The notes under the pieces: generated by a model
Told to the model about the DNA's origin: nothing
Seen by the model: only the letters and a program-made list of their open reading frames with translations
The model's database searches: none
Source of the DNA: Thozetella sp. PMI_491
Taxonomy: Eukaryota; Ascomycota; Sordariomycetes; Chaetosphaeriales; Chaetosphaeriaceae
Direction: 5' to 3'
NCBI GenBank assembly: GCA_021432635.1
Contig: MU270077.1
Location: 333,531-397,530 of the forward strand
DNA: 64,000 bases
Made by a program: the position numbers and the translations under genes
Part shown: one piece after another, positions 3 through 53,614 of the stretch
Numbering within the stretch: position 1 is the stretch's first letter
How the letters are laid out: every line of letters starts with the position of its first letter

Positions 3-2183
3 GGACTTGTTGGCGTAGCACCTGAAGCGTCCATATACATGTATCGTGTGTTTTCCTGTGCCGGCGGCGCCAGTGATGATGTACTCCTGGAGGCTATGAA
101 CCGTGCAGCAGCGGACGGTGTCAGCGTCATTAGTATGTCGCTGGGCGAGGTCGTCTACTGGCAGACGAACGACGTGTTCAGTGAGGTCACCAAAGCCCTG
201 AACGAACGGGACATCTCGCTGGTCATGGCGGCAGGTAACTCCGGTCAAGGCGGGCCCTTGATGGCATCTGCGCCCGCCATCAACCCCGGGGTCATCTCGG
301 TTGGCTCAATCAACAGTCACCAGTACCCAACGTGCTACAATGGCCATGACACGATGGGCGAGTCCATCCGGTACTGCAGTGTTCTCCCGCTGCCTGACAA
401 CGGACTGGACGGCATCGCGTGCGAGATACCCACCCTCAATCAGATCGGTGACCCGGCTTGGTACGCGGCCATCGAGGCCAAGTACTCCGACATGAGCAAG
501 GTCGTCTTCGTCTACTCGGAGGTTTACGGCTCGATCGCTTGGATTAACAGCCACCCTGCCAACGTGCGCAACATGTTCATCTACCAGGACCCAGACGAGA
601 CTGACGTCGACCCCGACCCCCCAACACCCTATGGCCAAGGCTGGGACGAATATTTTCTCACCTGGAATGACGGTCAAAAGATCTTGGCCGGGAAGGCAAG
701 CCAGGGCGATGCATACCGGCTCATATTCACGAACCAGTCGGCGGTCGGGGCCGCCCACCAAAGTGGCGGGTACATGAGCTTGTTTAGCGAATATGGACCT
801 ACGCAAGAAGGCTCCCTCAAGCCGACGCTCAGTGCGCCGGGACGGTGGATTCTCTCGACTTGGCCTGTGTTCGACGGCCAGGCCCCCGGGAGCTACGCTG
901 TCATATCGGGCACGAGCATGGCGACTCCCCACGTCGCGGGCTGCGTCGCCCTCATCCGATCCCGCTTCCCAGATATGTCAGCAGCGGAAGTGTTCCGCCT
1001 CGTGCAGAGCACATCCAGGCCGCTAGTGCTATACTCTGAAGCAAATGGGCCTAACCCGCAGGGGTTGCTCGACACGGTCGCCCATCAAGGCGCGGGGATG
1101 CTTCGATGCGAGGTGGCTATCCGTTCGGCGGAGAAGTCGGCGCTGTCCGTCTCGGAGTTCACCCTCGGTGCCGGCGATTCCAAATCACTCAAGCTGACGC
1201 AGACCATCGTCATCGAGAACAAGAGTGGCGCGCCCAAAACTTACCAATTGAGTCACCAGCCGGCTGGCGCCATCGATCGGATGCCATACTTTCCCAGCTG
1301 GCCTGATACTACTTATGGGTTTGGCCCACCAACAGCCGGCTTCACTTGGATCCCGTGGGACTTGACGTACAGCTCCGGCGCGGATGTTTCTTTCGACTCC
1401 CCCTCCGGCGAAACCTCCTTCACTGTTGACGCCGGCGCAAAATCGTCTGTGAACGTTACCGTTGCGCTCCCTCCGGATGCGAACCCCGACAAGCTTCCTA
1501 TTTACAGTGGATTCGTAACAATCCGTGCATCCTGTGAGCGGTACACTGTACCATACAATGGCTTGCTTACCCCCTCCGACGTCCTTGACCACTCAAACGC
1601 CTGGTACCCGGCATCTGCGACGAACCCCCCAGCCCCGGAGTTGAATCTGCCATGGTTTCCAATGATCACCAGTAGGTTTTCCAACGTGCGCAACAATGAC
1701 ATCGCCACCTACACCGGGGCGACGTCTCAGGACTACCCCGCGTTCTGGATGGTCGTCCGGCGACCCTCTTACTACATTCGCGTTGACGCCGTCCCGGTCG
1801 ACACGCCTTTCATCCCCGTTACTTATGGATACGATGTGAAGGCGCCCCTACCGCAAAATGTCAGCTTGGTGAAGCCGCCATTGGACATCGACCAGCTGGA
1901 CAAATTTGTAGACGTCCAGTCTTATGGCAGCATCCTTCAGTTTGCACCTTCCGAGACGGCGCCAGTACCCATTGACCCGAGCCGGTATATTCGCACTCCC
2001 GAGGGCATGCTGAATGGTTGGGGCTGGTGGGACGGTTACCTGTACTTGGCCAACGGCACCACGTACTCGGCGCCGAACGGTGACTATCGTCTCTTGATAC
2101 GGGCTTTGAAGAGTGCGGAGGATACAACACAGGCGGCGAGTTATGATAGCTGGCTAAGCCCAGTTGTGAGGCTCAGCCGGTGA
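3..2183 (+). CDS. Secreted subtilisin-like serine protease (S8, Vpr-like), 5' end outside the window
   Basis: The frame is open from position 3 and reads GVAPEASIYMYRVF, the segment that normally follows the catalytic Asp and His of fungal Vpr-type subtilases, so the true start and those two residues lie left of the window. The ATG at 39 is internal. The oxyanion Asn is in MAAGNSG (Asn codon 237-239) and the nucleophile Ser in GTSMATPHVAG (codon 915-917), so the visible half looks active. A PA-like insertion lies between them, and about 400 residues after the Ser form beta-rich Fn3-like domains ending at TGA 2183. It should act outside the cell as an endopeptidase. No break is visible. It is a useful active comparison for the related but catalytically altered gene at 40947. 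Confidence 0.92.
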   Translation, partial: GLVGVAPEASIYMYRVFSCAGGASDDVLLEAMNRAAADGVSVISMSLGEVVYWQTNDVFSEVTKALNERDISLVMAAGNSGQGGPLMASAPAINPGVISVGSINSHQYPTCYNGHDTMGESIRYCSVLPLPDNGLDGIACEIPTLNQIGDPAWYAAIEAKYSDMSKVVFVYSEVYGSIAWINSHPANVRNMFIYQDPDETDVDPDPPTPYGQGWDEYFLTWNDGQKILAGKASQGDAYRLIFTNQSAVGAAHQSGGYMSLFSEYGPTQEGSLKPTLSAPGRWILSTWPVFDGQAPGSYAVISGTSMATPHVAGCVALIRSRFPDMSAAEVFRLVQSTSRPLVLYSEANGPNPQGLLDTVAHQGAGMLRCEVAIRSAEKSALSVSEFTLGAGDSKSLKLTQTIVIENKSGAPKTYQLSHQPAGAIDRMPYFPSWPDTTYGFGPPTAGFTWIPWDLTYSSGADVSFDSPSGETSFTVDAGAKSSVNVTVALPPDANPDKLPIYSGFVTIRASCERYTVPYNGLLTPSDVLDHSNAWYPASATNPPAPELNLPWFPMITSRFSNVRNNDIATYTGATSQDYPAFWMVVRRPSYYIRVDAVPVDTPFIPVTYGYDVKAPLPQNVSLVKPPLDIDQLDKFVDVQSYGSILQFAPSETAPVPIDPSRYIRTPEGMLNGWGWWDGYLYLANGTTYSAPNGDYRLLIRALKSAEDTTQAASYDSWLSPVVRLSR

Positions 2184-19440: not shown

Positions 19441-19731
19441 GGGGGGGGGGGGGGGNNNNNNNNNNNNNNNNNNNNNNNNNNNNNNNNNNNNNNNNNNNNN
19501 NNNNNNNNNNNNNNNNNNNNNNNNNNNNNNNNNNNNNNNNNNNNNNNNNNNNNNNNNNNNNNNNNNNNNNNNNNNNGGGCACACCACTCCCCGAGCGGGC
19601 GCCGTCGGGTTTTATCAGGGGATCTACCTATGCAATATCCCAGAACGGGGGGGGGGGGGGGGGGCACACCACTCCCCGAGCGGGCGCCGTCGGGTTTTAT
19701 CAGGGGATCTACCTATGCAATATCCCAGAAC
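19441..19731. repeat. Poly-G tracts and 85-bp direct duplication around an assembly gap
   Basis: A G-run at 19441-19455 abuts 121 undetermined bases (19456-19576). Next come a 70-bp unit (19577-19646), an 18-G run (19647-19664) and an identical second unit ending at 19731, so the period is 85 bp. The gap may hide more copies, or the duplication may be an artefact of joining reads at a G-run. Confidence 0.85.
19456..19576. other. Assembly gap (121 N)
   Basis: A run of undetermined bases in the promoter of the surface protein gene; its real length is unknown. Confidence 0.99.
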
Positions 19732-25414: not shown

Positions 25415-25913
25415 AGTAATACCAAACTTGAGCCGAGCGTCTTATGAGGCTAGAGAGGACGCATAAGCGTGATTTATGGTATAAATTCGGGAGGAATTAC
25501 ACATAGAAAGACCTGGCTCCACTGCTAATTTGCTATGCGCCTTCTGACCATTTCATGGGCGAAAGATAGACCAGGATAGAAAAATCTCTACTTTTCTGTA
25601 CTCTTACTTTGCCTTCTCTTGTTCTTTGTACACAAACAAAAGGAAGGAGCTGGTCGACCAAATAAACAAAGGTATATCTGCGTGCATTAATTATACCAAA
25701 CACTACTGTGCCGCAGCTAAGGGTGCTACTACGTTCTTGGCATCCCAGAAGCGAAACGGAAATAGCTGGTTTTCGGTAACCAGGATTAGGGATAACGACC
25801 TAACCAACACTTGGCAAATTTTCCCCCTCGTGCTCAATCTCGAAACACTTCACGACATTCGCTAGTCTACCTGGCGGCGCAAGATAAACCTGCGTTCCCA
25901 GTAATCAGCAATA
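25415..25913. other. Intergenic, A/T-rich
   Basis: 499 bp. A 79-codon open frame (25626-25865) has no motif and an A/T-biased composition, so I do not call it a gene. Confidence 0.45.
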
Positions 25914-28424
25914 ATGCGAGTCCGGTGGTCGGCGTTGCTATTGCTCCCCTTTTTGCGCACATTGGCTGAGGCATTGGACAATTTGGCAGAGCCAGACCAA
26001 CATCCCATGGAACCAGTCGGCGCTCAGCCTGCAGACCAACAGCGCCCTATCGCAATGCCGCCCCTTGGTCTGCTAGGACTGCAGAAAGGATGTGCTCTCT
26101 GCCAGGGCATCGTTGAGATGTTCCAGACTCAGGTGGAGGAACCCTACACGGCCACTATTGAGATCCAGCCGGGCTCTGCGGAAGCGAGCTGCGATCTCCA
26201 CCAGCCCCTTCGGCTGGCCCATGAAAGAGAACTCGACCAAGACGGACGGGAACAGGAGACGATGAAAGCTCAAGTGCGGAAGGCACCGTTCGACCCACGC
26301 ATGAGCATCCGTTTCTCTACCTCCGACCGAGACGTTCTATTGGAGCTCGCCCGCAAACCCGGGTCCGAGACAGGCGGCTCCCCGGGCGAAGGGTGGCTTG
26401 GTGCCTCTGAATGGATCAACTTGGAGATGCTCAAGAAGTGGGTGAGCACATGCATGGTTGATCATTTCAATAGGTGCGAGCGCAGCCCCTTCGTTGGTGG
26501 TCATGAGTTACAGCGGCCAGCTTATCTTATCGACGCTGTAGAGGGCCGCCTTGTCGATACCTCCACTCTCCAAGACAACCCTCTATCGTACATAACCCTG
26601 AGTTATGTTCATGGAGCCGCTGATGGCCGAGGTTATCTCGCGGCAACGAAGGAGAACATCGATAGCCTGCAGAAGGCAGGCGCTTTCTTTGACAGCACTA
26701 TCGCCTCAGATATGGCACCTACATTCCGAGATGCGCTCGAGCTTGTGCGGCTGCTGGAATACCGATATATCTGGATACCTGCCCTCTGTGTTGTCCAAAA
26801 TGACTTCGAAAGCCAAGCCGCCGAGGCTGAAAAATTGCGAGGCATCTTGCTCGGCGGGGTCGTCGCGATTACCCAAGTCTGGGATGTGGATGGCAGCCAA
26901 GGCATACGCGGTATCAAGGAGCTGACCAATCCGCAGCCCAGGAACCCAAGCAATAAGTTGTACCCGTGGAGTGAAGTGGTACGTTTGGACTCTTATATGT
27001 TGCCTCCAGGGAAGCGACGCGACAGCGGTCTGGGGCCGAGCTTTGCCCAGCAGATCCGGAATCTGCAAGAAACCGTCTTGCCACGTCGGCAGCTTCGGTT
27101 TTACCATGACCACGTCGAATGGCGTTGCAACACCTGTTGGATCCGAGAGGAAACAGGTGGCTCTTGTGAATGCAACCCTATCCGCGTCAAGTGTCCCAAG
27201 GCCGCCTTCCCGAGGCTTAATTATGGCGAGGTCATGCTCCCGTATCGCCCACCACACTGGAGCGATGCCTTGGCACTGCCATGGTTCTCTGTCGATCACT
27301 ACTTCCAGGCTCTCCGCTATATGGCTGGATATGACCCTTCTGGTTCCGGTGATGTCCTCGAGGCCGCCGCTAATATTTCCTCGGCCCTCGGACTCCGCCC
27401 ACAGGCACCATTTATCTGCGGGATGCCTGAGGAGCGGCTGGATATAGCATTGCTCTTTGCCGCCCTCGGAGACGGTCATAACAGCCCCGAACGACGACAG
27501 GCCGGGCCGTCATCGCAGCCGGAGCTCCCATGGCCAAGTTGGTCTTGGGCTGGGTGGACCGGTGGTGTGGTACTGGATCCGTCCCAAAACGGTGACGACT
27601 ATTTCGAGCCCAACCAACAGGGGGACATCATTCCGATCGTCGAGTGGTATGCCAGTGACTCTCCCAGTCCAGATGCGCCCCAGCGCCGACTGGAAACCCG
27701 TCTTTGGGACGACCTCAAGCAGCGATTCCAGCACAGTTCTCGCGAAAGCGTCCCCGCCGGCTGGACGCGAGAGCAGAACCCCTGGATGGCTGACATTCCC
27801 CGCCCCAGATCAAGGAACGCAGGGGCTTCCGGGTTTGACGAGACTCTGGTGTACAAGCACAAGTCTGGACCGGACATGGATTTTGTCTATCCTATTCCCA
27901 TCCGAATGCCCGGGAGTGCAAATCCCCGCATGACTGTCGAGAGGTTTCTCAAGGGCAAGGTCGAGAGGGTATTTGTCTATATCCGATTCCGGGACTACAT
28001 GTCATACTATCATAACCAGCCTTATACCGTCTGGAGTGAAAACGGCCGCCACGTTGGTAGTCTACAGGCAACAAGATACAACGATCTAACCCGCCTGTTC
28101 AACATATCTATTCAGCCACAGTTCACGGCACCGCGTCTAAGCATGATGGGCCAGCAAAATAACAGCGACCACCCGCCACTGGATACGCAGGTCAAGATCG
28201 AGCTCGTCGCTCTCTCCAAGGCTTCTCTTGTGTGGAAATCGGACCTACCTTCAATAAAACCCGATGGTGTGACCCCTTACAACGGAAATGACTATGAAGC
28301 GTACTACAATGTCATGTGGATCGAGTGGGCGGATGGGGTTGCCTGCCGGAAAGGTATTGGGCATGTGACTGAGGCGTACTGGGACGAGCTGATACCGGAG
28401 ACCATCGACTTGGTACTGGGGTGA
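25914..28424 (+). CDS. HET-domain protein with signal-like N-terminus and altered core
   Basis: An intronless 836-aa protein. The HET (heterokaryon incompatibility) order is clear: WINLEMLKKWVSTC (167-180), PLSYITLSYVHG (223-234), MAPTFRDALELVRLLEYRYIWI (267-288) leading to ALCVVQND, then a PSWSWAG-like motif further on (WPSWSWAGW). Yet the usual SYCWG reads SYVHG, and the usual WIDSLCIIQ reads WIPALCVVQ. The N-terminus (MRVRWSALLLLPFLRTLAEA) looks like a signal peptide or membrane anchor, unusual for HET proteins, which act inside the cell in non-self recognition. Later Mets (32, 48) could be alternative starts without that segment. The frame is intact over 2.5 kb. Confidence 0.85.
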   Translation: MRVRWSALLLLPFLRTLAEALDNLAEPDQHPMEPVGAQPADQQRPIAMPPLGLLGLQKGCALCQGIVEMFQTQVEEPYTATIEIQPGSAEASCDLHQPLRLAHERELDQDGREQETMKAQVRKAPFDPRMSIRFSTSDRDVLLELARKPGSETGGSPGEGWLGASEWINLEMLKKWVSTCMVDHFNRCERSPFVGGHELQRPAYLIDAVEGRLVDTSTLQDNPLSYITLSYVHGAADGRGYLAATKENIDSLQKAGAFFDSTIASDMAPTFRDALELVRLLEYRYIWIPALCVVQNDFESQAAEAEKLRGILLGGVVAITQVWDVDGSQGIRGIKELTNPQPRNPSNKLYPWSEVVRLDSYMLPPGKRRDSGLGPSFAQQIRNLQETVLPRRQLRFYHDHVEWRCNTCWIREETGGSCECNPIRVKCPKAAFPRLNYGEVMLPYRPPHWSDALALPWFSVDHYFQALRYMAGYDPSGSGDVLEAAANISSALGLRPQAPFICGMPEERLDIALLFAALGDGHNSPERRQAGPSSQPELPWPSWSWAGWTGGVVLDPSQNGDDYFEPNQQGDIIPIVEWYASDSPSPDAPQRRLETRLWDDLKQRFQHSSRESVPAGWTREQNPWMADIPRPRSRNAGASGFDETLVYKHKSGPDMDFVYPIPIRMPGSANPRMTVERFLKGKVERVFVYIRFRDYMSYYHNQPYTVWSENGRHVGSLQATRYNDLTRLFNISIQPQFTAPRLSMMGQQNNSDHPPLDTQVKIELVALSKASLVWKSDLPSIKPDGVTPYNGNDYEAYYNVMWIEWADGVACRKGIGHVTEAYWDELIPETIDLVLG

Positions 28425-36765: not shown

Positions 36766-39201
36766 TCAAACTAACCCTAAGCCCGTAACGGGATCCCAGC
36801 CGGGTGCTGCTGAGAACCCGGGGGTTCCACACCCTGGGTTTGAGCCAACCGTGATGTCGCTGAACACTTCAGGGTGTGCGTACTACAACCACGTTGTCAG
36901 CTTGCGGCGCGGATGGATAGTGGCCAGGAACGCTCTTACCAAAGTAGGATTGATGAAGCCTACAGGACTTTTATTAACAGCAAGCCGCTCCTCGTTGATG
37001 CGAGTGACGATCGAGGCCCAGATTGGTGCGGATAAAGAAGTACCGCCGATGAGGCCGAAAGACTGAGCGAACACGATGAGATAGTTGGCCCCAACAGCGG
37101 ATACGTCAGGATATCCACGCCCGCTGATATTGTATACGCCGCTGCCGGGGTTGGAGGACAGGTCGGTAGTGTTGGAGTAGCCTGGAAATGGTATCTCCAC
37201 CGTGTCGAAGTATCCTTGAACGGCGCTCGCTTGGTAGTCAGCCCTCGGAAAGACGTTAGAGAAGCCGCCCCCGGAGGGGAATTGCGTGGTTGCGACCTCG
37301 TTCCATTTGCACTTGGGCGCATTGGAGGTCGTATAAGCATCCAGCTCCGTCGAACCGACCGCCAGCACGTAAGGGCAGGTGGCAAGGAAGGACGGGTTGA
37401 AGATTGTGCTATCCTCGCCCTCGCACCCTGTCGGGTTGGGATCTCCCGGGAAGCTGGCCACCCCGTCGTCCCCAGAAGAAGTGACAATGGTGGTACCCTG
37501 CATAGCCAGCTTCATCGCCTCGCTGCACTGGCGCTGGACGTAATATGGCGGATAATCAGCCTCAGCCCCGCCATACGAGATGGAAATTACGTTAGTCGCT
37601 TCGTAAACGCCGCACATGGTGGTCCCCTGGTACCCATACGAGTCGGGATAAGAGGGATCAAGACATTCTTCAACCTTGCAGTCGCCTGTCTCACCAAAGG
37701 CGCTATAGGTACAATAGCTGCCGTCGATAGCGTCGAAGAAAGCTAATTGAATGGTTAGCCATCCTGATTCGCGGGTGCAGGTAGGCTAGGCGGGTTGGAC
37801 TACTTACTATTGTAGAATCCCTTGTAAGGCGAGTTTGCCTCAGTCTGGCTGCGCTCAATGTATTGATCATCGTTCTGGTACATTACAACTTTTTGGGGCC
37901 AGATTAGGGGCCAGACAGCCTGCACATCGAGAGCTGCTTCGGTCCCAAGCTGGTCCAGAGTCATACCAGCGCCGATTGCACCGTTGATGTTATCCTCTTT
38001 AGGATATGTGCCTCTCGGTATTTCCCTATAAAAGGCTGTTAACATCGGCGTATCTACTTTTTACACCGAACACACTTACGGGTAGACATTTGTCCAATAG
38101 GTATCAAGGTCCCTGGGCGAGTAGTGCTGGTTGAGGGCCGAAAAGATGCCCAATTCGTTGCCCTGCGTAGCCGTGGTGCCTTTCGGCAACCGGTATTGGT
38201 CTACTAGAATTAGCAAGCAGTCTCTTATGACTCCACATTGTCGACAGCATGAAGTCCACTTACTTCGAATGCAGACCGGGGTCACTATTTGGTCACACAT
38301 GCTGCTATTGTATTGCGTGTCCCCATCGGAACTCTGGCGTTGAAAGCTATCAGGCAGCAGCGTAAAGCCGGTATTGCTGGCCTTGACTCGCCTTTTGGAT
38401 GACTTAGAGCTGGGGGATCGCTCCTGATTGGAGCCGGGCTCCGGGTTGCGTGGCCGAAGGCGGATTCCCGGCGTTATGTAGTCGATGTGCTCCGTGATGT
38501 GGGATGGGATGTGATATTGATCACAAGCCACCTCTAAAGAGCCCGTCTCGATGTGCTCGAACACGAAGTAGTCGGCATACAGGATACCTTCAACCTCTTC
38601 AACTGAAGCATCAAACTGGACCCACTACACGCCAACCCAGCACCGGGGCCTTAAATCAGAGAGCGTCCTAGCTAGAGGGCGTACCAATGGGCCCGACATA
38701 CCTGCTTGTTTACAGAGTGGGAGAGACGATCCTTGGAGATGCCCCCCTCCACGAGCCAGTTCATTACCGACTCGACCTGAGACGAAGGCGGAGCGAAGAA
38801 TTCGATCACCTCTTCCGCACTCAGGTGCTTGCCATAGCTTGGCGAGTTGGGGTTGGAACTGTGGAATGTTAGTATAGAGAAAGACCCAAGGTGTGAACGG
38901 AAGGCAGGAGGATTTGCAGCCCTCATCAGGTATGCATGCAGACTTACATTTCCATCAGCTTTTCATGACCGTCTCGGAGGTTTCTCTGCCTCAGCCCTAC
39001 CCTCATGGGCAAGACAGTATCGCGAGGCGCCTTCTGTCTCTTGTCCCATTTGGAGACCCAATGGTCTGGTTGCCGCTCATGGAGAACATGAGTATCCGGC
39101 AGCTGGCGCTTTTGAAGGTGACCCTCCGCATTGGCCGAAGCGCCAAAGACGGCGGCAATGTGACCGCCGGCCAGCACGGCCGACAGATATCGGAACAGCA
39201 T
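36766..39201 (-). CDS. Sedolisin (S53, tripeptidyl-peptidase-like), 7 exons
   Basis: Exons 39201-38948, 38858-38702, 38624-38264, 38200-38080, 38025-37808, 37742-36940 and 36882-36766 give 676 aa. A signal peptide (to about residue 23) is followed by a prodomain with DHWVSKWDK, DTVLPMRVGL and SPSYGKHLS. The Ser-Glu-Asp set is Glu327 and Asp331 (GTEAALD), oxyanion Asp462 (TSSGDDG) and Ser606 (GGTSLSAP). The Ca site is coded by the last exon (SDIT...GWDPVTG). It should cleave peptides at acid pH outside the cell. Odd points: a 50-residue basic, Ser-rich linker (SSKSSKRRVKAS) between prodomain and catalytic domain, a plausible processing site, and a stop right after VTGLG, so the usual TPNF tail is missing. 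Confidence 0.92.
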
Positions 39202-40946
39202 GAGACAGAATCTCAAGTCGCAGTTCCTCCTAGGCAGAAGCTGAGACAGGGCACAGCGTCATCGACGGCCGGACGCTAGGCGATGCCACGAAACTCCAAG
39301 TATAAAGGTGGCAGACAATGGAGAACAAATCTGGCCGTCGTGTCGGGTGCTCTCTGCAACGGGCGGATTGGCTGTCGTTCCGGCCAAACCGCGGGGAGGC
39401 TCTCAGCTAAGGGATCATGTCCCTGTCGTACTGGATTCCGAATGGGCTCAGTGCATCGATGCTACTGATTGCCTTCCTCATTCGTGACAGTAAGCCCTGG
39501 GCCGTTATCGTTCGCTTCATGGCTCTCAGAGAACCTATAGCGCCGATCACCGGGGGCACTAATGCCCTGTATTAGGAAGGTTGGAGAGCCGGCGACGGCG
39601 GCCAAGGCTGCAGTTTCAGGTACAAACGGCGCAAGGGAACACGTCTGTGCGGGAAGAGGGCTTCGTCGAGCTGCGCTAGAAGCCGCCGCTATGTCGGATC
39701 CATGGTAGCATCCTGGGCAGCTCAAGAGCGAAACCGCGTGATTATACCGCAAACGAACATCGCAATGGCTAGTGGTGGCACGCCGAAATTAATTTACGCA
39801 ATGTAACCCTAGGGGCGAGATCTATGGTGATGGTGTATAAGAGAGTGAGCCCTGTGGCATCCCTTATCGTCGTAGCGTATGCAGCCACTCATTAGCGAGA
39901 CAGGTTTTCGGGTCGGAATGTCGGGCCCGCTGCCATCGTAAATGTGCCCTGTCCTCCCTTCTGAGGCGATTGCCTAAAGTATGTATGTACCAAGCAACCA
40001 AAAGTTTGGTCCAAAACTGCACAACAAGAAAGCACACCCTCTTTCATAATTCGCAGCATCGAGCAAATGATGAGTGCAGTAGCATAACACGAGCAAGCAA
40101 GTGAGCAGGTAGAATAACACCTACTGGAAACTGAGCCAGTCCAGCTCAAAAATATGCGAGAGGGAACTGCTCGGATATCCTGCCGAGCGGCGAGCCTAGT
40201 CGGTTTCGGTACAAGTGCCGCCTCGGAGAGAAGAACTTAAACGTGTGGGGGTCGCAACCCCAGGACGAGAATAGAAACGCGTCTTGGCGTCTTACCACGG
40301 ACGCGATGTGGTGGTAGCCCATCCACGTTGACAGGGACCCCGCGACCAGGCCAAAGCCAGGCCTATGACAACTTCCTCTTCCGGGCCGCGCAAGCCCTGG
40401 AGCTAGCCATCTTCACCACGGCCTTCCCATGCAGGTTGGGCACAAGAAGGCCTGCATGGCCCGTGGGCGACTATTGACGCCCTTGGAGGTGATCCCTTAC
40501 CACACTCGCATGCTCGCTAAAGCTACGGGAAATTGGCGGCAGATCGGTACCCTTTATTTACAGGCAGGATTACCGATTTCTATGCCGCCGCACCCAAATC
40601 AACCCCCCCTGACGACGTCACTTAATGCGGAAGGTGTGCCTACTGCATCGGATGCCTGCATGCTAACACCCATAACCTTCCGGGATGTGTTTGTCTCGGC
40701 CCTACCAGTGAGCTCTGACCTGGGTCGGAAATGTCGGCTAGCATTTTATAATAGCGATCTAATATCTCCGAGCGCAGCTCGGCTGGCAGCTTAGGAAGCC
40801 GCACGCGCAGAGCCAGCAAGCTGCTGAGTCGACCACAGGGGCAGTTGCATGTCAAGCCGGAGACCTCCTTGGTCTCGAGCTTTCGCAGTCTCAGCCCCAA
40901 GTCTAGGTCCAAGGTAGCTACAGCCTACGATCTGAGCGTCGTTGCA
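39202..40946. other. Divergent intergenic region
   Basis: 1.75 kb between the sedolisin and the pseudo-subtilase, read away from each other. A possible exon or relic lies at 40640-40912 (minus). The plus-strand stretch at about 40330-40470 also has coding-like composition but no recognised family. Confidence 0.4.
40640..40912 (-). pseudogene. Possible orphan exon or gene relic
   Basis: A minus-strand frame without an ATG codes a basic, leucine-rich segment: a CNCPCGR cluster, then LPKLPAELRSEILDRYYKML, which resembles an F-box-like LPxEL start. It is bounded by stops upstream and has no visible partner exons. It lies 35 bp from the next gene's start on the other strand. Either a relic or chance. 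Confidence 0.2.
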
Positions 40947-43900
40947 ATGCGTGCTGTCGGCCTCGCGCTCGCCTTCGCTCACGCAGCCAGCGCTCTTGCT
41001 GTGCAGAACCGCCCCGATGCCTTCGTGGCTTCGCCCGAGCTCTCGGGCAGGTCGGGCGGGTCGAAACGCTTCATCCTCGAGGTGGCACCGGTATGATGGA
41101 CCAGAATCGCGAAACCACTGATGAGTGCTAATGCGCATGGCAAAGGGTGCATCGTTGGGAGATCTCCTCGCCCAAGTCCGCTCAGTCGAGGGTACGACGG
41201 TTACCAAGATCTTTGACTCGCCGGTCTTCTCCGGGGTCAGTGTTGACGCCGCGGATGGGGACATCCACTCTCTCCAGTCGTTCACGGCGGCTGCAAATGT
41301 ATGGCCATCTAGGAGCGTCTCGCTCGGTGTAAGGGATCCCTTGGACTCCTACGCCGCGGCCATCGGTAGCCCCAACTACTCGGTCCACGGCATGACCGGG
41401 GCCGACAAGCTTCATGCGACAGGACTTTCGGGCAAGGGCGTCCAGATCGCCTTGATAGGCACCGGTGCGGACTACACGCATCCTGCCGTGAGCTCCCCGA
41501 TATACTTCTTCTACTAGGAGACCATCTGACTTAGAGCCAGCTTGGGGGGTGCTTTGGGCCGGGTTGCAAGATCGTTGGCGGCTATGACTTTGCCGGAGAT
41601 GGTTGTGAGTCATTAGGCTCCGCTCCACGTCGATTATCGTAGTCTCTTTACTGATTTCTGTAGGCTGGCCACTGATCGGCTGTCGAAAATCTACTGACGC
41701 GGATCCCATGGACACCAACGGCCGCGGAACCCAGGCAGCTGGTGTTCTTGTAGGCGCCGATGATGCATCTGGGTATGAGTCCTATCTATCGATTCAACAG
41801 GTTGATCCTTTACTTATTTCTCTAGTTTCTCCGGCGTTGCACCCGAGGCTACCGTCTATGTCTACAAAGTTGTCGCCTCAGATGTACGTTGCAATTCCGC
41901 CTGGCATCTCCCTTTGGTGGCCCCATCCCCAGTGCGGCTCAGTGTGGCGTGCTAACTATACCTTCCATTTCAGACTATTATTCACCCGCCAGGCTTCGGC
42001 GTCGTCGCGTCACCTGTAAGTTTGAGATTTAATACTTCTACTGCGTGGCGTTGGGTTCTTGCCATGCATCGATATTCGCAGGAGCTAATTCGAGCCTTGC
42101 CGTAGCCATCAACAGACGACGAGACGTTGATTGAAGCTTTCTTGAAGGCATATGATGACGGGGTGAGTCTTAAACCCATGCTTGCGGAACGCCACGCTCA
42201 CAGCGCTCCAGGCGGACATTATTAGCTGTGCCCCTATCAGCGTCAGTGGCTATGCCAACGACGCGCTCTCTACCGTCGCATCACGGCTTGTGGATGAGGG
42301 TGTTCTGGTGGCAATCGGTGTTGGCGAGTCGTCCAACTATGGCCCTTACTATTCTTACACCGGCACCTCGGGGAAGAAGGTGTTGGCCGTCACTTCTGTT
42401 CAGGCGGATGTCACTCCCCAGTCCGCCTTCCCGGCGGCGCTGCATCTCAATGGCGCCTCCAGCAATGTCCGAATCGGGTTTAACAGCTGGGGCTCCATTC
42501 CTATGCCCAGCACACTCGTGGACTTTCCAATTGTGCCTCTGACCATGAACACAGCTATCACCGACGATGCCTGTGGCCAAGTTAGCGGAGACTTCTCCAA
42601 CTCGATTCCTCTGGTGCGGCTGGGAGGTTGCGATGCTATCCTGAAGCAGGCGAATCTCGAGGCGGCTGGTGCTCAGTATATGATATTCTACCCGAACAGT
42701 ACAGTAGTGCAATACGAAGGTCTGAACTTCGATGGCACCGCGGCGTACGTCATCTCGCACACCTCTGGCGAGGGCATTGTCAACGCATATATAGCCGGCG
42801 GGACCGTCACTGGAGATTTCTCAGCCGATCCCAACACGTACAAAGTTGCAGGGCCGGTCACGGACGGCACGGGCGGCACCCCAGATACCGCCGGCAACTG
42901 GGGTCCGTTGAACGATCTCAGCATCAAGCCGGACGTTGCTGCACCAGGCTCGAACATCTGGGCGCCAACTCTTAACCATGATTGGTACTACACGCTGTAC
43001 GGCTCCGAGGTGGCTTCCGCATACATCGCCGGGATTGCAGCCTTATATATCGAACGGTTCGGTGGACGCAAGACCAACCCCAACTTCAACGCTACCGAGC
43101 TTGCCATGCGCATTATGTCTAGCGGATCGCCCCTCCCGTACTTTGACATGAGAACTTACACATTAACTTCGGACATTGCTCCAGTAGCGCAAGTGGGTTG
43201 CGGAATGGTTAATGCGACCAATGTGTTGAGCTATACCACCTCGCTCTCATTTGCCAAATTCGAGCTCAACGATACGCACCACTTCGAGCGATACCACAAG
43301 GTGGACATCACAAACAACGCCGATGTGGATGCGACATACACCTTTGGAGTGCTCCCTGGCGTGGGACTCGAAACTTGGCTCACGAGTGCCGATCGAATTG
43401 CGCGGCAAGACGAGTTAACGCCTATTGACCTCCAGCCCGACATCCATATGCCATCGGGGACGTTTAAGCTCTCGCCTGGTGAGACCAAAACAGCAGAGTG
43501 AGTGGACCCGCAGTTTGCTTGAACCCAGACCAGAATTGGTAACTGACTCCTCTTAGATTCGACTTTACGCAGCCAGATTACTCTGGAATTCTGCCTCTGT
43601 ACGGCGGCACCGTTCTTATCAACTCGAGTCTTGGAGAGTCGCTCTCGGTTCCATATCTCGGTATATCATACTCACATATCAAATTTAATCGTGCCAAGGT
43701 GTCTAACAGTGAGCACGACAGGCCTTGCAGCGAATCTGCACGACTCTTTCGAGGCTATATTTACCACTGGGTATCCTTACATCACGTCCGGGATGTATAA
43801 TGACAGAGGCAGCGACGGAGACTCGTACGTGACCTTCATATGTCAGACAAAAATCGAATAAGCTAACTTCTAGGATATAGCTGGTCTTTTGACCTTTCAT

Positions 43901-44413
43901 TTTCAGCACAGTCGTTCCCGAAGCTGAATGTCATGTTCAGATGGGGTACTGATGAGCTACGTTGGGATGTATGTGATGCTCCTGCTCCAATAATACCACA
44001 AATCCCAGAAGTCATCAAACTAAACCGCGGTACAGATCTTCGATTCTACCTACAGCGAATCGGAATGGGTTTACCCACCTATGGTAGGCCAGAACAAATA
44101 TGTCGGGAGCGCCACCTACTGGCACTTCTCCCAGTTCGCCTATTATTACGACCCGGATGCTATCCTGATTGCTTCGAACATCTCAGCCTTCCCACTCACC
44201 GGTGTTTCCCGTGGCTATGCTCTTAGCCCATTCATCCATACCAACACTCCTCCAGATGTACGGCAATGGTGGTGGCTCGGAAGCCTCGCCGACGGGACAG
44301 TCATTCCAGCCGGCAAGTATGTGATGCGAGTTGCTGCACTCCGCCCCTTTGGCGACCGTACGAGATCTAGTGACTGGGATGTGTGGACACAGTCATTTGC
44401 AGTTTCTCCATAG
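40947..44413 (+). CDS. Secreted pseudo-subtilase (S8, Vpr-like) with all catalytic residues replaced, 12 exons
   Basis: Exons 40947-41090, 41146-41487, 41541-41604, 41664-41772, 41826-41883, 41974-42015, 42106-42162, 42212-43497, 43557-43660, 43722-43824, 43881-43968 and 44036-44413 give 924 aa. A signal peptide (MRAVGLALAFAHAASALA), an I9-like prodomain, the S8 fold and Fn3-like C-terminal domains are all present, and conserved structural strings such as GGCFGPGCKIVGGYDF and FSGVAPEATVYVYKV align with active Vpr proteases. But Asp of DTG is Gly153 (IGTGADYTHPA), His of HGTH is Arg204 (NGRGTQAAG; the second His is Gln207), the oxyanion Asn is Glu311 (GVGESSNYGP), and Ser of GTSMA is Glu538 (GSEVASAYIAG). 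All introns are GT-AG and no stop interrupts the frame, so it looks like a maintained, non-peptidase protein. Confidence 0.88.
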
Positions 44414-44675
44414 ATGGAGGTAGGCAGGCGTGAAACAAGGTTTAGATCACCATTATAAGTCAAGACGCAGTCGCTAGCGCGTAAAATAGGGCAAATATGA
44501 CGTATTAGATTAATATCCCCGGCAGTGAAGATACCACGGATAACCACCCAGTATTTGATGATGCTTGGGAAGCAATGGAGTGGCGTCAAAGGAGTACCAA
44601 GTACAATGGGGAGCCTTGGCCCCGAATATATCGACAATCTGATCCAGGTGGCTAATTCCATAGTTTTCGGGAAAG

Positions 44676-46362
44676 CTACATGCAGGTAATATCTAGCAAA
44701 GTCTTGTCCAGATTCGTGCAAGTGTAGGATCCGGCCTTCCCACTGGGGGGTACCACGGTGATGTTATGAGCTTGGACATTCTTGCAGACCTAATGCCTTA
44801 GTTAGTCACATGATCATATAGATACCTAAGGGAAAGCAGGTTCTACTTACCGTAGGGCCGCTGCAGACGAGACTTCCGAGTTTCGGGTCGTACTTCTTCG
44901 AAGTCACCCCTGCGAAATCTTTGAACAAGACGTTCTCGATGATAACGTCGGACTGTCACAGTTAGGGAAGAGCACGGGCTTGCATTGAGGAGAAGACTAA
45001 CTGGATACTGGTCGCAGGCCGCCTGGCTTGCGGCAAAGTAGCACTGCGTGAGTGAGATCGCATCTATATTCCCATGCATGTTAGAGCTGAAATTCGCACG
45101 TACGAATGCAGTGCCACGTACTATCATTGTTGCTGATGTTCATGCCTTCATATGTCACATTGTAAACGCGTCCTAGGTATCGAGTTAGCCATCTCGGTAT
45201 ACACAATGACGAGAGATACCACATACCACTACCGCCTCCGCTGGTGGATCCTGTTACGTTAGGAGCTACGCCCGGCCAGACTTTGATGCGTGCCGAGTCG
45301 CTCGCATTCGAGATCGAGATGTTATATACATAGATGTTCTCGATAATGTCAATCTCGCCTTGGTATTGCCCCAGGCTCCCAACAGAAATTCCGTGGGATC
45401 CATTGCAACGCAAGTTCTGGATTAGGACTTGGGTCGAATTCGGCTTGAACGATACGCAGTCTACACGTAGTTAGCACTGGCCTGCTCGTATAGGAAATGC
45501 AACTAACCATCTGTGTTGTTGATGACTGAGTCCTGAATCACAATATTGTCACTCCGGAATGTGTCCCAGCCGTCAGTGTTCTGCTAGGGTTAGCTGTCTC
45601 CGTCCCAGATTCGCGGATAGAATGACCCTATGGTCGCATACCTTGGCCGGGTACGTGGCGTTCAGTTGGACCACATTCAAGTTCATATCCGAGATGACGA
45701 TATCAGAAGAGTTGGCAATCAAATTGAACCAGTTGGGGGGATTCTTCATGTTCAGCCCCGTAATTGAGCCACCGTGCAAGCCATCGGTGCCGAAGAGGAT
45801 TGGTCGAATGACTGAGGAGTTAATCGATGCCGCAGTCCACCACGTCTGCCCGACGCCTGTTCTCGGTTAGAGGTGCGTCAGGATGCATGATGTAACTGAA
45901 CGGCCTACCGTCGATGACACCCTGACCTAGGCCATAGATGTTGACGTCCTCGCCACCAAATCGCCACATCAGGTGCGCGGTCTGGTACGTGTAGGCGAAG
46001 AAGCCGTCTTGCCAGCCATATACGTCATCCTTGAAGACAATTGTTCCTAGAATAGCGAAATCGATGCTCTTTAGGAAAGTCAGATCCAGCTTCGAAGCAA
46101 TCTTCCACTTTCCGCCGGCAGGGAACACGACGGTGCCGCCGTTGTTGCACTCCTTGGCAGCCGAGAGGATGGCGGGAGACGCATCGCCACATATCCGAGG
46201 CACGACGCACACTTTGAGTGGATCGCGTTTGGGACTGGCGGGCAAAGCTTTATATGGCTGCTTGGGGTGGAAAGCTACCGAAGGGCGCTCTGGGGCTTGG
46301 ACAGAGGCTGCACAGCTTGCTCCCACCGAGAGGGCGAGCAACACGGCGTTGCTTAGCTGCAT
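44676..46362 (-). CDS. Exo-polygalacturonase (GH28), 8 exons
   Basis: Exons 46362-45855, 45811-45642, 45580-45508, 45460-45227, 45172-45122, 45063-45002, 44952-44851 and 44789-44676 give 437 aa. A signal peptide (to about Ala18) precedes the beta-helix. GH28 residues are intact: Asp229 (NTDGWD), Asp250/Asp251 (TDDCVSFK), His273 ([13 protein letters not shown]) and Arg308-Ile-Lys310. The [12 protein letters not shown] and FKPN strings mark the exo-acting, galacturonan-trimming group. It should release galacturonic acid from de-esterified pectin. The first intron is only 43 nt with a GTCGGG donor but restores LIRPILFG. It is head to head with a pectin methylesterase, which would make its substrate. 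Confidence 0.93.
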
Positions 46363-47020
46363 GGCGAGAATTGGTCCTGACCGCGGGCAATGGAGGCAAG
46401 TCGGTCAGAGAAGAAGCTTCCTGGAGCAGTACAACCAGCATGTATCCACGGGATGCAACTCTGGGATGGGCGAAGCATGTGACATAAATACGATTGCGTC
46501 CCTTCGGGTGACATTGATCATTACCATTGGAGACAAGCTGAACAGATTCCCGGGTTAGCTTCGCTCCCGGCCTATTGTCTTACACCGAGCTATGACCGCA
46601 TCTGACCAAGCTACTGCATACCACATCGTTAACCGGGCTCTTGACCTGCTGTCCAGGGGGAAGAAGCCGGGGTTGAATTTAGCCTAAGCACGGCAGCAGG
46701 CACCGCCCGCACGCAGTTGGGGTTATTCCAGGGGATCTACAGCGTGCGGGGGAGCTTGACACCTGGTAAATTTTCCAAGAACATGGGGAGCAAGGTAGAT
46801 CAGAGCTTTACCCCAGAAACCCCAACGGCGAACAACTCCATAGTTCAGGAAAAACAAATCGCACCAATCATGTTGCAAGGGCTGATAGGATCACAGCGGG
46901 ACGCAGACTTCCCCTCTGGGAAAGTTACGGCTTGGCCGGCAACATTAAGAAGTCACGGTACGTAGAAGATGGCGATTATTCTTCACGCACTCGCGTATTG
47001 CTTGCCGGGTTATCGTCAAG
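46363..47020. promoter_or_regulatory. Bidirectional promoter, exo-polygalacturonase/pectin methylesterase
   Basis: 658 bp between divergent starts. One CreA-type GCGGGG (about 46747) and one reverse GGCTAA (TTAGCC, 46679-46684) are visible. I found no exact galacturonate-responsive CCNCCAA element. Confidence 0.5.
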
Positions 47021-48190
47021 ATGCAATTCCTTGCCTCACTCGCTACCTTGCTGTCACTGAAGGCCACGTTGGCCGCTCCTGTAGCTGACGCCTCCGCCTT
47101 TACCGACTGCCAGAAGATTCGGAACGCCCCATCATGTGACTGGATCGTCGTTGGCAAGGACCAGCCTTCTGCCCAGTTCAGCACCATCCAGGGTGCCATC
47201 GATTCCCTTCCAAACAATACTACGCCATATCGCATACTCGTGCTGTCTGGTAACTACACAGAGCAGCTCAATGTCACACGCCCCGGCCCCGTCTGGCTGT
47301 TTGGGCAGACAGACCATCCTGATGACCAGACCAAGAACACAGTGACAGTCTACTGGTCATCTGCCAACGGTGCTGGTTCCGGCTTTAACGACAATGCCTA
47401 CACCTCTGTGCTCACTGTTGCCCCAACGTGGAATGCAAGTCTCGTCGGCAGCGGGCCGACGGGCTTCCCCGTGCCGGAAGACACCCCTTTCGGCAACCTC
47501 GACTTTCGCGTATACAATATCGACTTCCGCAACATATTCTCTCAGCAAAGCGCCGGGCCCTCGATGGCACTGTCCGTCAGTCGGGCCAACGCTGGCTTCT
47601 ACCAGTCGGGCTTCTATAGCTACCAAGACACGATATTTATTGGCAAACTTGGAAACGCATTCTTCTTTGGGTCTGACCTCGCAGGGCAGACAGATTTCTT
47701 ATATGGCTTCGGCACGGCCTGGATAGAAAAGTCCAACGTCACTTTGCGGGGCTGTGGCGGCGGCATCACTGCTTGGAAGGGCGCCAACACCACCTTCACA
47801 AATAGATACGGAGTTTACATTGCGAACTCTGTCGTCCGTCCCGAGAACGACACCATTGCGGCCAACAATGTAGGCAAATGTGCGCTGGGCCGGCCGTGGA
47901 ACTCGCTTCACCGGAGCGTCTTCCAGAACACGTATCTGTCCGACGTCGTGCTCCCGGGTGGCTATACAGGATGGGGAACAAACTATCATGCCAATGAGAC
48001 CTTGATGGCGGAGTATCGTGACTACGGCCCTGGTTTCAACCTGACCAGCCGCCAGAACAGTGACGTTACCACTCTGTTGGATTCTGCTGGCGTTGGGCCC
48101 TACCACTGCCCACAGCTCGTCTTTACTGACCAGAACGGCAAGTGTTCCGATTACAAGTGGATTGACCGGCGGTTCTTGCCTACTTGTTAG
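47021..48190 (+). CDS. Pectin methylesterase (CE8)
   Basis: A 389-aa intronless secreted protein: signal peptide ending about Ala19 (SLKATLAAP), then the CE8 beta-helix. Motifs: SGNYTEQL (GxYxE box), YQDTIF with Asp203, GQTDFLYGFG with Asp225, and LGRPW with Arg291, the two Asp and Arg being the catalytic set. The usual QAxAL box reads PSMAL, as in a fungal clade close to this sequence, so the anion-hole Gln is not conserved here. It should hydrolyse methyl esters of homogalacturonan outside the cell, preparing it for the divergent exo-polygalacturonase. Confidence 0.92.
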   Translation: MQFLASLATLLSLKATLAAPVADASAFTDCQKIRNAPSCDWIVVGKDQPSAQFSTIQGAIDSLPNNTTPYRILVLSGNYTEQLNVTRPGPVWLFGQTDHPDDQTKNTVTVYWSSANGAGSGFNDNAYTSVLTVAPTWNASLVGSGPTGFPVPEDTPFGNLDFRVYNIDFRNIFSQQSAGPSMALSVSRANAGFYQSGFYSYQDTIFIGKLGNAFFFGSDLAGQTDFLYGFGTAWIEKSNVTLRGCGGGITAWKGANTTFTNRYGVYIANSVVRPENDTIAANNVGKCALGRPWNSLHRSVFQNTYLSDVVLPGGYTGWGTNYHANETLMAEYRDYGPGFNLTSRQNSDVTTLLDSAGVGPYHCPQLVFTDQNGKCSDYKWIDRRFLPTC

Positions 48191-49200
48191 ACGCATCTTC
48201 AGAATAGACATGCTACTGTGGACAGTCATGATACCGGGGGTTTATGGCTATTATGGAGAGCAAAAGCTAGAAAGGTCTGGAGACTCGAATGTTTCGACAG
48301 ACACTATACTCCGAGACGAATGTTTCACTTAGTTTACATAGCACAAAGTAGCACTAAAACCTGTTACTTGCTAGGCCATCGAGCCGACTTTCTACCGCAG
48401 CCAGTCTAGGGTTTCAGATCTATGTATAGCACAATATATTGTCTAAAGCTTCCCCTCCCTTATCGGTCCCCTTGTCTACTTAGATACATACCATATATGC
48501 AGTGTCACTCTTCAGATGGTCACTCAGCCTCAGAGCGGTAAATCGATACCGGTGGGGCCTTCACAAGCTCCGTATCTGCCCATCGACTAAAGGATACACA
48601 CCTCACGCCCACGCCATTACCCCATGGGGTGAACACAATCTACTCAAGCCTTTAATTCTTTAGCGGCTCTGCTGCCCAAAACTAGGTTTTGCATGAATAA
48701 TCTCCACCCGCTGGTGTTCAACATGATCCCATCGCTGTGGTAAGGCCCGCCGCAGGGGGGTTAGACATTTAGGCTAAACGGAGAGTAAATACGTTACTCG
48801 GGCCATGATTGGTGGAATTCGAAGAGGAGGGATGCACACCCGCGAAGTATGAGTAGGATCTTCGAACCCTTGCACGGTGATTTGGCTTCTCAGGTCGGAC
48901 TATTACCTAGGTGGCTTGTATATTGCTTGCCCGCTTAGTTAGCTCTGTAGATAAGAAGCTTAGCTCGGGCCATGTTCGTATAATCGGTCATGAAGCACTG
49001 TAATTAAGAAAGCGGGGACACCTATCAAGACAGACGGTGGTAGAATGGCAGCACAAGCTCTTGTGGCGAGCAACAAAGTTACAGACCAAAAGAAAATGGC
49101 CCTCCTTTAGGCAAAGAACAAGATTATTACAAAAAGGATAAAATCATTCTTCAGTTTAGTAGATTGTGCACCGTCATTGCAGTTAGGGATACGCATCTAT
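48191..49200. other. Convergent intergenic region
   Basis: 1.0 kb between convergent genes. Short frames only; nothing recognised. Confidence 0.5.
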
Positions 49201-51701
<2,501 letters not shown>

Positions 51702-53614
51702 ATGCCTGACCTGAAGCGTGTTTACAACTGGTAAGTTTTCCTGAATCGAGCATGCGAGCAGCATGGCCTTGCTTGTCTTCTACCATGAGTTTCGGCTTCA
51801 TCATGAAACTGACCCGATGTCCTAAGGTACATCGGCCTTGTGGCCGCAGGGTGCATGGTACTGATGGGCTACGATGCGTCTGTCTTCAACTCTGTCCAAG
51901 TTTCTCCGCACTGGATCGAACACTTTGATAACCCCGTAAGTAATTCGTATCTATCAAGCCCGCCTCTGTACACGAGTTATTATCAGGTAAGAAACTAAAA
52001 GCCGTAAACTCTACAGGACAGCAATACGCTAGGATTGATCAACACTACCTACAGTGTGGGTGGTATTATTGCCGGATGGTTCTTCTCGGGCCCCATAGTG
52101 AGATATTCTCATTCACGATTGTATCCTGAATGCTCCTAACCAACTCGCAGTCAGACATGTTCGGCCGTCGTTGGGGTATGGCATCTGGCTGCATCCTCAC
52201 TGTCATTGCCACCTTCGTGCAGACATTTGCACCGTACCACGGCTTAGGAGCCTTTATCGCCGGTCGTGTAATGATTGGGTTTGGGCAGGGGCTTGCCATC
52301 AGTCAGTGCACTATAAAGAACGCCGCAAAACAAGGCGTGTAGAGCTGACAGGCCGCTTCTTCCAAATAGCTTCTGGGCCAATCTACATCGGCGAGGTTAC
52401 ACCTCCTGACGTCCGCGGCAAACTCATGACCTTCTGGCAGCTCTTCTACTCGGTCGGTTCCTTCGTCGCCTACTGGATCAACTACGCCACAGCCTTGAAT
52501 CGCGACAAGCTGGGCGAGTGGGACTGGAAGATGGTGGTTATCTTCCAGCTGCTTCTTCCCGTCCTCATCGTGGCCCAGCTGCCCTTCATACCCGAGTCAC
52601 CTCGATGGCTGGTCGGCCGAAAGAATAACTTGGAAGCTGCTCGTGTCGCGTTGTCCCGGGTTCGGTCGACGCCTGGAGAAGTGGAGGAAGAGCTTATCAG
52701 CATCCACGAAGCCGTCCAGTACGAAAAAGAGGTTGCCCCCAGCCGGAAGAGCCAGTACCTCGCCCTTGTCAAGGATGCTAGCATCCGGAAGCGCCTTATT
52801 CTTGTTTTCATCATCAATATCGGCCAGCAGTTGAGTGGGCAGGGTACGCTCAACAGCTACTCGTCCACCATCTACAAGAAGGTTTTCTCGAGTGTGGATA
52901 CCATCAACCTCATTAATGCGCTCAATGCTACCTTTGGTATCTTGTTTACTCTCAACGCCGTGTGGACCGTCGATAGGTTTGGACGAAAGTTCCTGTTTAT
53001 AGTCGGCGCCATTGGTATGGCATTCTGCACCATGCTCATTGCCGTCGTGGGCCTGACTACCCCCGACGTGAACGGAGGCAAGACCTACCCCGTCGGCATT
53101 GCCATCGCCTTCTTGGCGTTCCTCTTCATTTTCTTTTACAAGCCATCCTGGGGAGCGACGGTTTGGATTTACACGTCCGAAGTGTTCCCACTGCATGTGC
53201 GTGCTCAGGCGGTCGGCATGTCGGTCCAGATGCAAGGAATCGCAAACACCATTTTCCAACAATTCTTCCCCACATTTTACAACAACTGCGGCCTGTAAGT
53301 TTTTGTCTGCTTGGCCAGCACAGCCCTCACGGCTGCAGAGCCACACTCTCCGCGAGCTACAGCTACTAATGATGCATGGCAGGAAAACCTTTTTCTTCTT
53401 CATGACTACTAACATCCTGCTGGCTGTGTTTGTGTGGTTTTGTCTCCCAGAGACCAAGAAGGTTCCACTAGAGCAGATGGATGTTCTCTTCGGCGGAGTC
53501 AGCCATGTCGAGAAAGGCGCCGACTTGATGGATGGTAAAGCTCCAGCTGTCGAGCTTGCTGAGACGGAAAGGAGGGAGACTGGTCCGGAGACTGTTGCCG
53601 GTAGGAAGGATTAG
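51702..53614 (+). CDS. MFS sugar transporter, 6 exons
   Basis: Exons 51702-51730, 51827-51935, 52017-52097, 52151-52301, 52370-53294 and 53383-53614 give 508 aa with 12 membrane segments. Sugar-porter signatures: GYDASVFNSV in TM1, SDMFGRRWG after TM2, GRVMIGFGQGLAI in TM4, PESPRWLVGR in the central loop, QQLSGQGTLNSYS in TM7, DRFGRK, and PETKKVPLEQMD after TM12. It should import a hexose, pentose or oligosaccharide by proton symport at the plasma membrane. The divergent GH43 gene makes a plant cell-wall sugar the likely cargo; that is inference. Confidence 0.92.

What the first reader, a model, noticed from the sequence alone, without database searches (positions are those of the whole stretch)
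40947..44413. Intact secreted subtilase with all four catalytic positions replaced
Asp to Gly153, His to Arg204, oxyanion Asn to Glu311 and Ser to Glu538, yet signal peptide, prodomain, fold strings, Fn3-like domains, 11 GT-AG introns and an uninterrupted 924-aa frame remain. A decaying gene would be expected to collect stops or bad splice sites. This points to a pseudoenzyme: perhaps an inhibitor, decoy, chaperone or substrate-binding protein for active proteases such as those at 3-2183 and 36766-39201. Two of the four replacements are acidic, so a new ligand or metal site is conceivable.
Basis: partly seen in the sequence, partly recalled or inferred. Interest (0 to 1): 0.82.

Follow-up and report, generated by a model that had tools for sequence, protein, structure and literature searches.

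The report
Fungal secreted subtilase without catalytic residues
A fungus carries an intact gene for a secreted protein-cutting enzyme of the subtilisin type in which the residues needed for cutting have been replaced while the rest of the protein is about as well kept as in a normal-looking relative, so it probably acts by binding rather than by cutting.

Summary
A 12-exon, 924-codon frame (40947-44413, +) has 11 of 11 GT-AG introns and no internal stop. It is a subtilase (Pfam S8 61.6 bits, cut-off 21.8). Asp, His, oxyanion Asn and Ser are Gly153, Arg204, Glu311 and Glu538; the substrate-strand motif SLG is API. In 57 aligned prokaryotic relatives these positions are D in 57, H in 56, N in 54 and S in 54.

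The loss is targeted. Against the relatives' majority residue, outside the active-site blocks this protein and the window's other subtilase (3-2183) have each lost 33 columns that the other keeps; inside, the split is 11 to 1. In 400 neutral-decay runs, losing all four residues always brought at least 7 stops.

Best reading: a maintained, secreted, catalytically dead pseudoprotease, probably with an uncleaved prodomain as in CspC of C. difficile. The rebuilt substrate strand makes a decoy for ordinary subtilisin inhibitors less likely. Its partner is unknown. No fungal orthologue was reachable, so dN/dS was not tested. Two fungal surveys removed such sequences beforehand.

The parts
40947..44413 (+). 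pseudo-subtilase gene, 12 exons, 924 codons plus stop
   Evidence: Pfam PF00082 E 1e-16
40947..41000 (+). likely signal peptide, about residues 1-18 (hydrophobic stretch ending in an ALA cleavage-like motif)
   Evidence: sequence and hydropathy; judged by eye, no signal-peptide program was available
41070..41316 (+). prodomain-like region (about residues 42-105; coordinates approximate and include intron 1)
   Evidence: listed relatives align from residue 21 or later; of 7 conserved columns at residues 42-80 in an 11-relative alignment, 5 kept; no Pfam hit
41458..41460 (+). Gly153 at the catalytic Asp position
   Evidence: Asp in 57 of 57 relatives
41723..41725 (+). Arg204 at the catalytic His position; Gln207 follows at 41732-41734
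   Evidence: His in 56 of 57 relatives
42230..42238 (+). Ala-Pro-Ile in place of Ser-Leu-Gly of the substrate-binding strand
   Evidence: S, L, G each in 31 of 31 rows of the order set and in 3-2183; among all 57 rows S in 55, L in 36, G in 34
42326..42328 (+). Glu311 at the oxyanion Asn position
   Evidence: Asn in 54 of 57 relatives, 2 gaps, 1 Asp; Asn in 3-2183; one solved relative aligns its Asn to Asn314 instead
42548..42706 (+). PA-like insert (about residues 385-437), weak
   Evidence: Pfam PF02225 20.7 bits, below cut-off 23.9
43007..43009 (+). Glu538 at the catalytic Ser position
   Evidence: Ser in 54 of 57 relatives, 2 gaps, 1 Gly; Ser in 3-2183
43289..44413 (+). Fn3-like and C-terminal region, start approximate
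   Evidence: aligned to 3-2183, whose fn3_5 match begins there, up to residue 918; no Pfam hit of its own
3..2183 (+). comparison gene, not part of the finding: subtilase with normal Asn and Ser motifs, its start outside the window

Best explanation
The gene encodes a secreted S8-family pseudoprotease of the Vpr/pyrolisin type. Shown: an intact frame and splice sites, a family-typical fold core, and replacement of the catalytic positions and much of the substrate strand. Inferred: it cannot hydrolyse peptides by the family mechanism and cannot cut off its own prodomain, which would stay attached unless another protease trims it. Inferred: Arg204 sits between Glu538 and Glu311 in the former catalytic pocket and forms a salt-bridge cluster that locks or rebuilds the site. 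Inferred and least certain: it works by binding another extracellular protein, most likely an active protease of the same fungus or a host or cell-wall protein, in a manner comparable to the CspC and CspA pseudoproteases that control germination beside the active CspB in C. difficile.
For: 924 codons without a stop and 11 of 11 GT-AG introns; branch-point motifs in 8 of 11. S8 domain at 61.6 bits; alignment to 3-2183 from residue 222 to 918, E 3e-16. Positions replaced where relatives keep them. Conserved columns (90% level, aligned to both window proteins): this protein keeps 4 of 16 in the blocks and 30 of 51 elsewhere, 3-2183 keeps 15 of 16 and 34 of 51; Fisher p 0.0002 for blocks and 0.54 elsewhere. 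Loss asymmetry 33:33 outside blocks, 11:1 inside. Of 400 neutral runs none was free of stops, minimum 7. GC3 0.629, within the 0.574-0.812 of nine other window frames. CspC is a documented precedent with an unprocessed prodomain (PMC6636752, passages).
Against: No orthologue, transcript or protein evidence; purifying selection after the loss is inferred, not measured. Block limits were set after an earlier column list had been seen. Within this protein alone the contrast of blocks with the rest is weak (p 0.41 and 0.12 at the 80% level, 0.057 and 0.023 at 90%). Relatives are distant: mean identity over residues 222-660 is 23% for this protein and 28% for 3-2183. One solved relative places its oxyanion Asn opposite Asn314 rather than Glu311. 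The fold model of exon 8 was poor (mean pLDDT 46.5), so the pocket geometry rests on general knowledge of subtilisin.
Confidence: 0.62

Rival explanations
1. A recently dead duplicate of an active pyrolisin that has not yet gained stops or splice damage.
For: No expression or orthologue data; pyrolisin genes are commonly duplicated in Sordariomycetes, and survey authors treat genes with unclear triads as pseudogenes (PMC5371821, passages).
Against: All four positions changed, two by double base changes, with no other damage; in 400 neutral runs this state never came without stops (rates assumed). Loss is concentrated in active-site blocks.
Confidence: 0.15
2. A decoy that binds protease inhibitors of a host or competitor and so protects active secreted proteases.
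For: Likely secreted; lies near pectin- and xylan-degrading genes and a sedolisin-type protease. In a beetle, an inactive pseudoenzyme of a secreted pectin-degrading enzyme binds plant inhibitor-like proteins (PMC8213348, abstract and section list).
Against: The strand and motif by which canonical inhibitors dock (SLG, GTSMAxPH; docking recalled) are replaced, whereas a decoy would be expected to keep them.
Confidence: 0.1
3. A different activity: the two acidic residues and Arg form a new ligand, metal or hydrolytic site.
For: Glu311 and Glu538 replace two residues that are neighbours in the subtilisin site (general knowledge of the fold); both need double base changes.
Against: No relative with the same residues among 57; no usable fold model; nothing points to a ligand.
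Confidence: 0.1
4. Sequence or gene-model artefact.
For: One stretch of 121 N in the window, so the assembly is a draft; no transcript supports the model.
Against: Replacements lie inside exons, need at least six base changes, and leave the frame intact.
Confidence: 0.03

Closest known systems
CspC and CspA of Clostridioides difficile (subtilisin-like pseudoproteases)
   Same: Subtilase proteins with lost triad; CspC keeps its prodomain because it does not process it (PMC6636752, passages).
   Different: CspC carries a jelly-roll insert, CspA and CspC are mutated at two of the catalytic residues, and they act in spores; this one is a fungal, likely secreted Vpr/pyrolisin-type protein changed at all three plus the oxyanion position.
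Fungal pyrolisins such as Pr1C of Metarhizium (S8A)
   Same: Pyrolisins usually carry an Fn3-like domain (PMC5371821, passages); this protein aligns along its length with 3-2183, which has one.
   Different: The pyrolisin motifs around Asp, His and Ser are absent here.
8jmw_A, S8 family serine peptidase (best solved relative by sequence)
   Same: Aligned over residues 74-576, E 9.3e-15.
   Different: Has the normal Asp, His and Ser motifs.
Mycosin-like protein in Mycolicibacterium vaccae (L009)
   Same: Open frame with His to Gln, Asn to Asp, Ser to Gly.
   Different: A mycosin (TIGR03921) that keeps the Asp; a separate loss.

Membership tests
Peptidase family S8 (sequence family) | Significant match to the subtilase domain | tested here: met
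   PF00082 61.6 bits, cut-off 21.8
Peptidase family S8 (active peptidase) | Asp, His, Ser triad and oxyanion Asn | tested here: not met
   Gly153, Arg204, Glu538, Glu311; a displaced Asn314 is possible for the last
Fungal pyrolisin group | Asp, His and Ser motifs of the group | tested here: not met
   GTGADY, GRGTQ, GSEVAS; motifs as given in PMC5371821
Fungal pyrolisin group | Fn3-like C-terminal domain | tested here: inconclusive
   Aligned to 3-2183, which has fn3_5, but no Pfam hit of its own
Subtilase pseudoprotease | Subtilase sequence core kept, triad lost, gene intact | tested here: met
Subtilase pseudoprotease | Selective maintenance in orthologues | not testable with these tools
   No fungal collection; no whole genome held for the window; viral contigs gave none
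Subtilase pseudoprotease | No proteolytic activity, prodomain uncleaved | not testable with these tools
   Needs the protein
Csp family | Jelly-roll insert of Csp proteins | not tested
   Only a weak partial match to CspBA by exon 8 (21.9 bits, cut-off 1250)
Sedolisin S53 | Ser-Glu-Asp triad | tested here: not met
   Glu at the Ser position, Arg at the His position; that sedolisins carry Glu there is recalled

The most novel reading that the evidence does not exclude
This represents a conserved but overlooked fungal group of secreted pseudo-subtilases, dropped from surveys by triad filters, in which the catalytic pocket has been rebuilt into a Glu-Arg-Glu site with a new binding or catalytic role.
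Probability: 0.15. Interest if true: 0.75.

Novelty: new variant of a known kind. Interest (0 to 1): 0.45.

Why it matters
Subtilase pseudoproteases with a known role are few (recalled; CspC and CspA are the cases that the searches brought up). Two fungal surveys removed such genes before analysis: one called sequences with unclear triads pseudogenes (993 genes clustered, 904 kept; PMC5371821, passages), the other excluded proteins with two of three catalytic residues replaced (PMC5567314, passages). An intact case with all positions replaced suggests that part of what was discarded may be functional, and that can be tested in existing fungal genomes.

Tried and rejected
Whole genome of the window: none held. 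Relatives in viral contigs: none, with the protein alone and with an alignment. Genome contigs gave 28 loci, all titled as bacterial or archaeal records. Metagenome collection: not used, cap 0. dN/dS: no orthologues; 3-2183 is too distant (23% identity). Fold model of exon 8 alone, 428 aa with a 16-row alignment: mean pLDDT 46.5, not used for any claim and not searched against structures. Rfam on the window: no match at the gathering score. Bacterial-type promoter scan: no more than chance. Repeats of 20 bases or more at 39200-45000: one imperfect direct and two imperfect inverted pairs, not pursued. The test of blocks against elsewhere within this protein alone was weak at the 80% level (p 0.41 on all columns, 0.12 where 3-2183 is aligned) and modest at 90% (0.057 and 0.023); the comparison with 3-2183 carries the argument. 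Rows: of 58 loci, L003 gave no usable frame (350 aa or more, matching, no X) and was dropped. L001 and L029 are the same gene by their positions, so the 57 rows are 56 genes and the order set of 31 rows is 30 genes. A first extraction used only 11 relatives because it read one strand and asked for 500 aa; it was redone. The simulation's mutation and indel rates are assumptions. Literature: 9 searches showed, among the listed titles and abstract starts, no paper on a fungal subtilase pseudoprotease; some searches listed 20 of 24, 44 and 35 papers; the library holds open-licence papers only.

Full report
Gene and model. The window is fungal in kind (Zn2Cys6 and HET domains; short GT-AG introns); the species is not known and no genome is held. 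The gene at 40947-44413 on the + strand has 12 exons, 11 of 11 GT-AG introns and 924 codons without an internal stop. An alternative acceptor in intron 2 gives 926 aa; the 924-aa form is preferred because it reads HPALGG without an insert, closer to the HPDL of the best solved relative. With the 926-aa boundaries, 8 of 11 introns have a CTRAY branch-point motif near the acceptor, against 3.5% per exon window.

Family. Pfam gives Peptidase_S8 at 61.6 bits over residues 144-559. The best solved relative by sequence is the S8 peptidase 8jmw_A, E 9.3e-15 over residues 74-576. The other subtilase in the window, 3-2183, aligns to residues 222-918 with 23% identity and E 3e-16. The protein is thus a Vpr/pyrolisin-type subtilase along its length by alignment, although Pfam sees neither a prodomain nor an Fn3 domain in it. 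The name Vpr/pyrolisin rests on this layout and on PMC5371821 (passages).

The replaced residues. In 57 aligned prokaryotic relatives (56 genes; 57 of 58 loci fetched) the Asp position is D in 57, the His position H in 56, the oxyanion position N in 54 and the Ser position S in 54, with 2 gaps in each of the last two. The one relative with other residues at His, Asn and Ser is L009. Here the four are Gly153, Arg204, Glu311 and Glu538. The second His of HGTH is Gln207; it is less constant in the relatives (H in 35 of 57). The substrate-strand motif SLG, present in 31 of 31 rows of the order set and in 3-2183, is API, and GTSMAxPHV reads GSEVASAYI. The Glu311 assignment has one dissenter: the alignment to 8jmw_A gaps there and puts its Asn opposite Asn314, while the stretch against 3-2183 is ungapped and 7xr8_A agrees with Glu311. 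A displaced oxyanion Asn would not bring back the triad.

Is it decay? Three results say no. First, a simulation of neutral change from a coding sequence of this length reached loss of all four residues at a median of 0.82 changes per site, with a median of 29 stops (minimum 7) and of 136 frame-breaking indels (minimum 12); 0 of 400 runs had no stop (rates assumed). Second, at columns at least 90% conserved in the order set and aligned to both window proteins, this protein keeps 4 of 16 in the active-site blocks and 30 of 51 elsewhere; 3-2183 keeps 15 of 16 and 34 of 51. The block difference has Fisher p 0.0002, the rest 0.54. Third, counting columns where only one of the two departs from the relatives' majority residue, the split (this protein to 3-2183) is 33 to 33 outside the blocks and 11 to 1 inside at the 50% level, 23 to 19 and 11 to 0 at 70%, 10 to 6 and 11 to 0 at 90%. 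The block limits were chosen after a first column list had been seen, and within this protein alone the contrast of blocks with the rest is weak to modest (p 0.41 to 0.02). These results show that the fold core has been kept about as well as in a normal-looking relative. They do not measure selection since the loss, for which orthologues are needed.

Mechanism. With no nucleophile, base or Asp, hydrolysis by the family mechanism is excluded as far as sequence can tell. Self-cleavage of the prodomain needs the same residues, so the prodomain should stay attached, as shown for CspC (PMC6636752, passages). From the general geometry of subtilisin (recalled), Arg204, Glu311 and Glu538 would lie together in the old pocket; a salt-bridge cluster is the simplest guess. 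A fold model of exon 8 was too poor to test this (mean pLDDT 46.5). Because the substrate strand is rebuilt as well, docking of canonical subtilisin inhibitors or of ordinary substrates is unlikely, which counts against the decoy and substrate-binding ideas. A binding or regulatory role towards another extracellular protein is the most likely, at low certainty.

Surroundings. Towards the left lies a sedolisin-type gene on the - strand with its motifs present; towards the right a GH28 gene, a pectinesterase, a GH43 gene and a sugar transporter. This fits a secreted protein of a fungus that feeds on plant material, but no link in function is shown.

Known work. One fungal survey removed sequences with unclear triads as pseudogenes, 993 genes clustered and 904 kept (PMC5371821, passages). 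Another excluded proteins with two of three catalytic residues replaced (PMC5567314, passages). An Aspergillus niger inventory counts one putatively inactive serine protease (PMC7804941, passages). Nine literature searches showed, among the rows listed, no paper on a fungal subtilase pseudoprotease; this covers open-licence papers only.

Verdict. It is a new variant of a known kind.

Noticed in passing
L009, about 2692-4110: A mycosin (TIGR03921, 372 bits) in Mycolicibacterium vaccae with an open frame but His to Gln, oxyanion Asn to Asp and Ser to Gly in the alignment: another likely pseudoprotease.
   Followed up: partly
window 36766-39201, - strand: Sedolisin-type protease with a pro-kumamolisin domain and motifs EAALD, SSGDDG and GTSLSAP present.
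   Followed up: partly
window 45081-53298: Run of plant-cell-wall genes: GH28, pectinesterase, GH43 and a sugar transporter.
   Followed up: no
window 59054-60892, + strand: A 612-codon frame with a CPAF-like PDZ domain (PF23658) and the highest GC3 of the ten frames compared (0.812).
   Followed up: no
window 25905-28424, + strand: An 839-codon frame with a HET domain.
   Followed up: no
window 19456-19576: A stretch of 121 N, so the assembly has a gap here.
   Followed up: no
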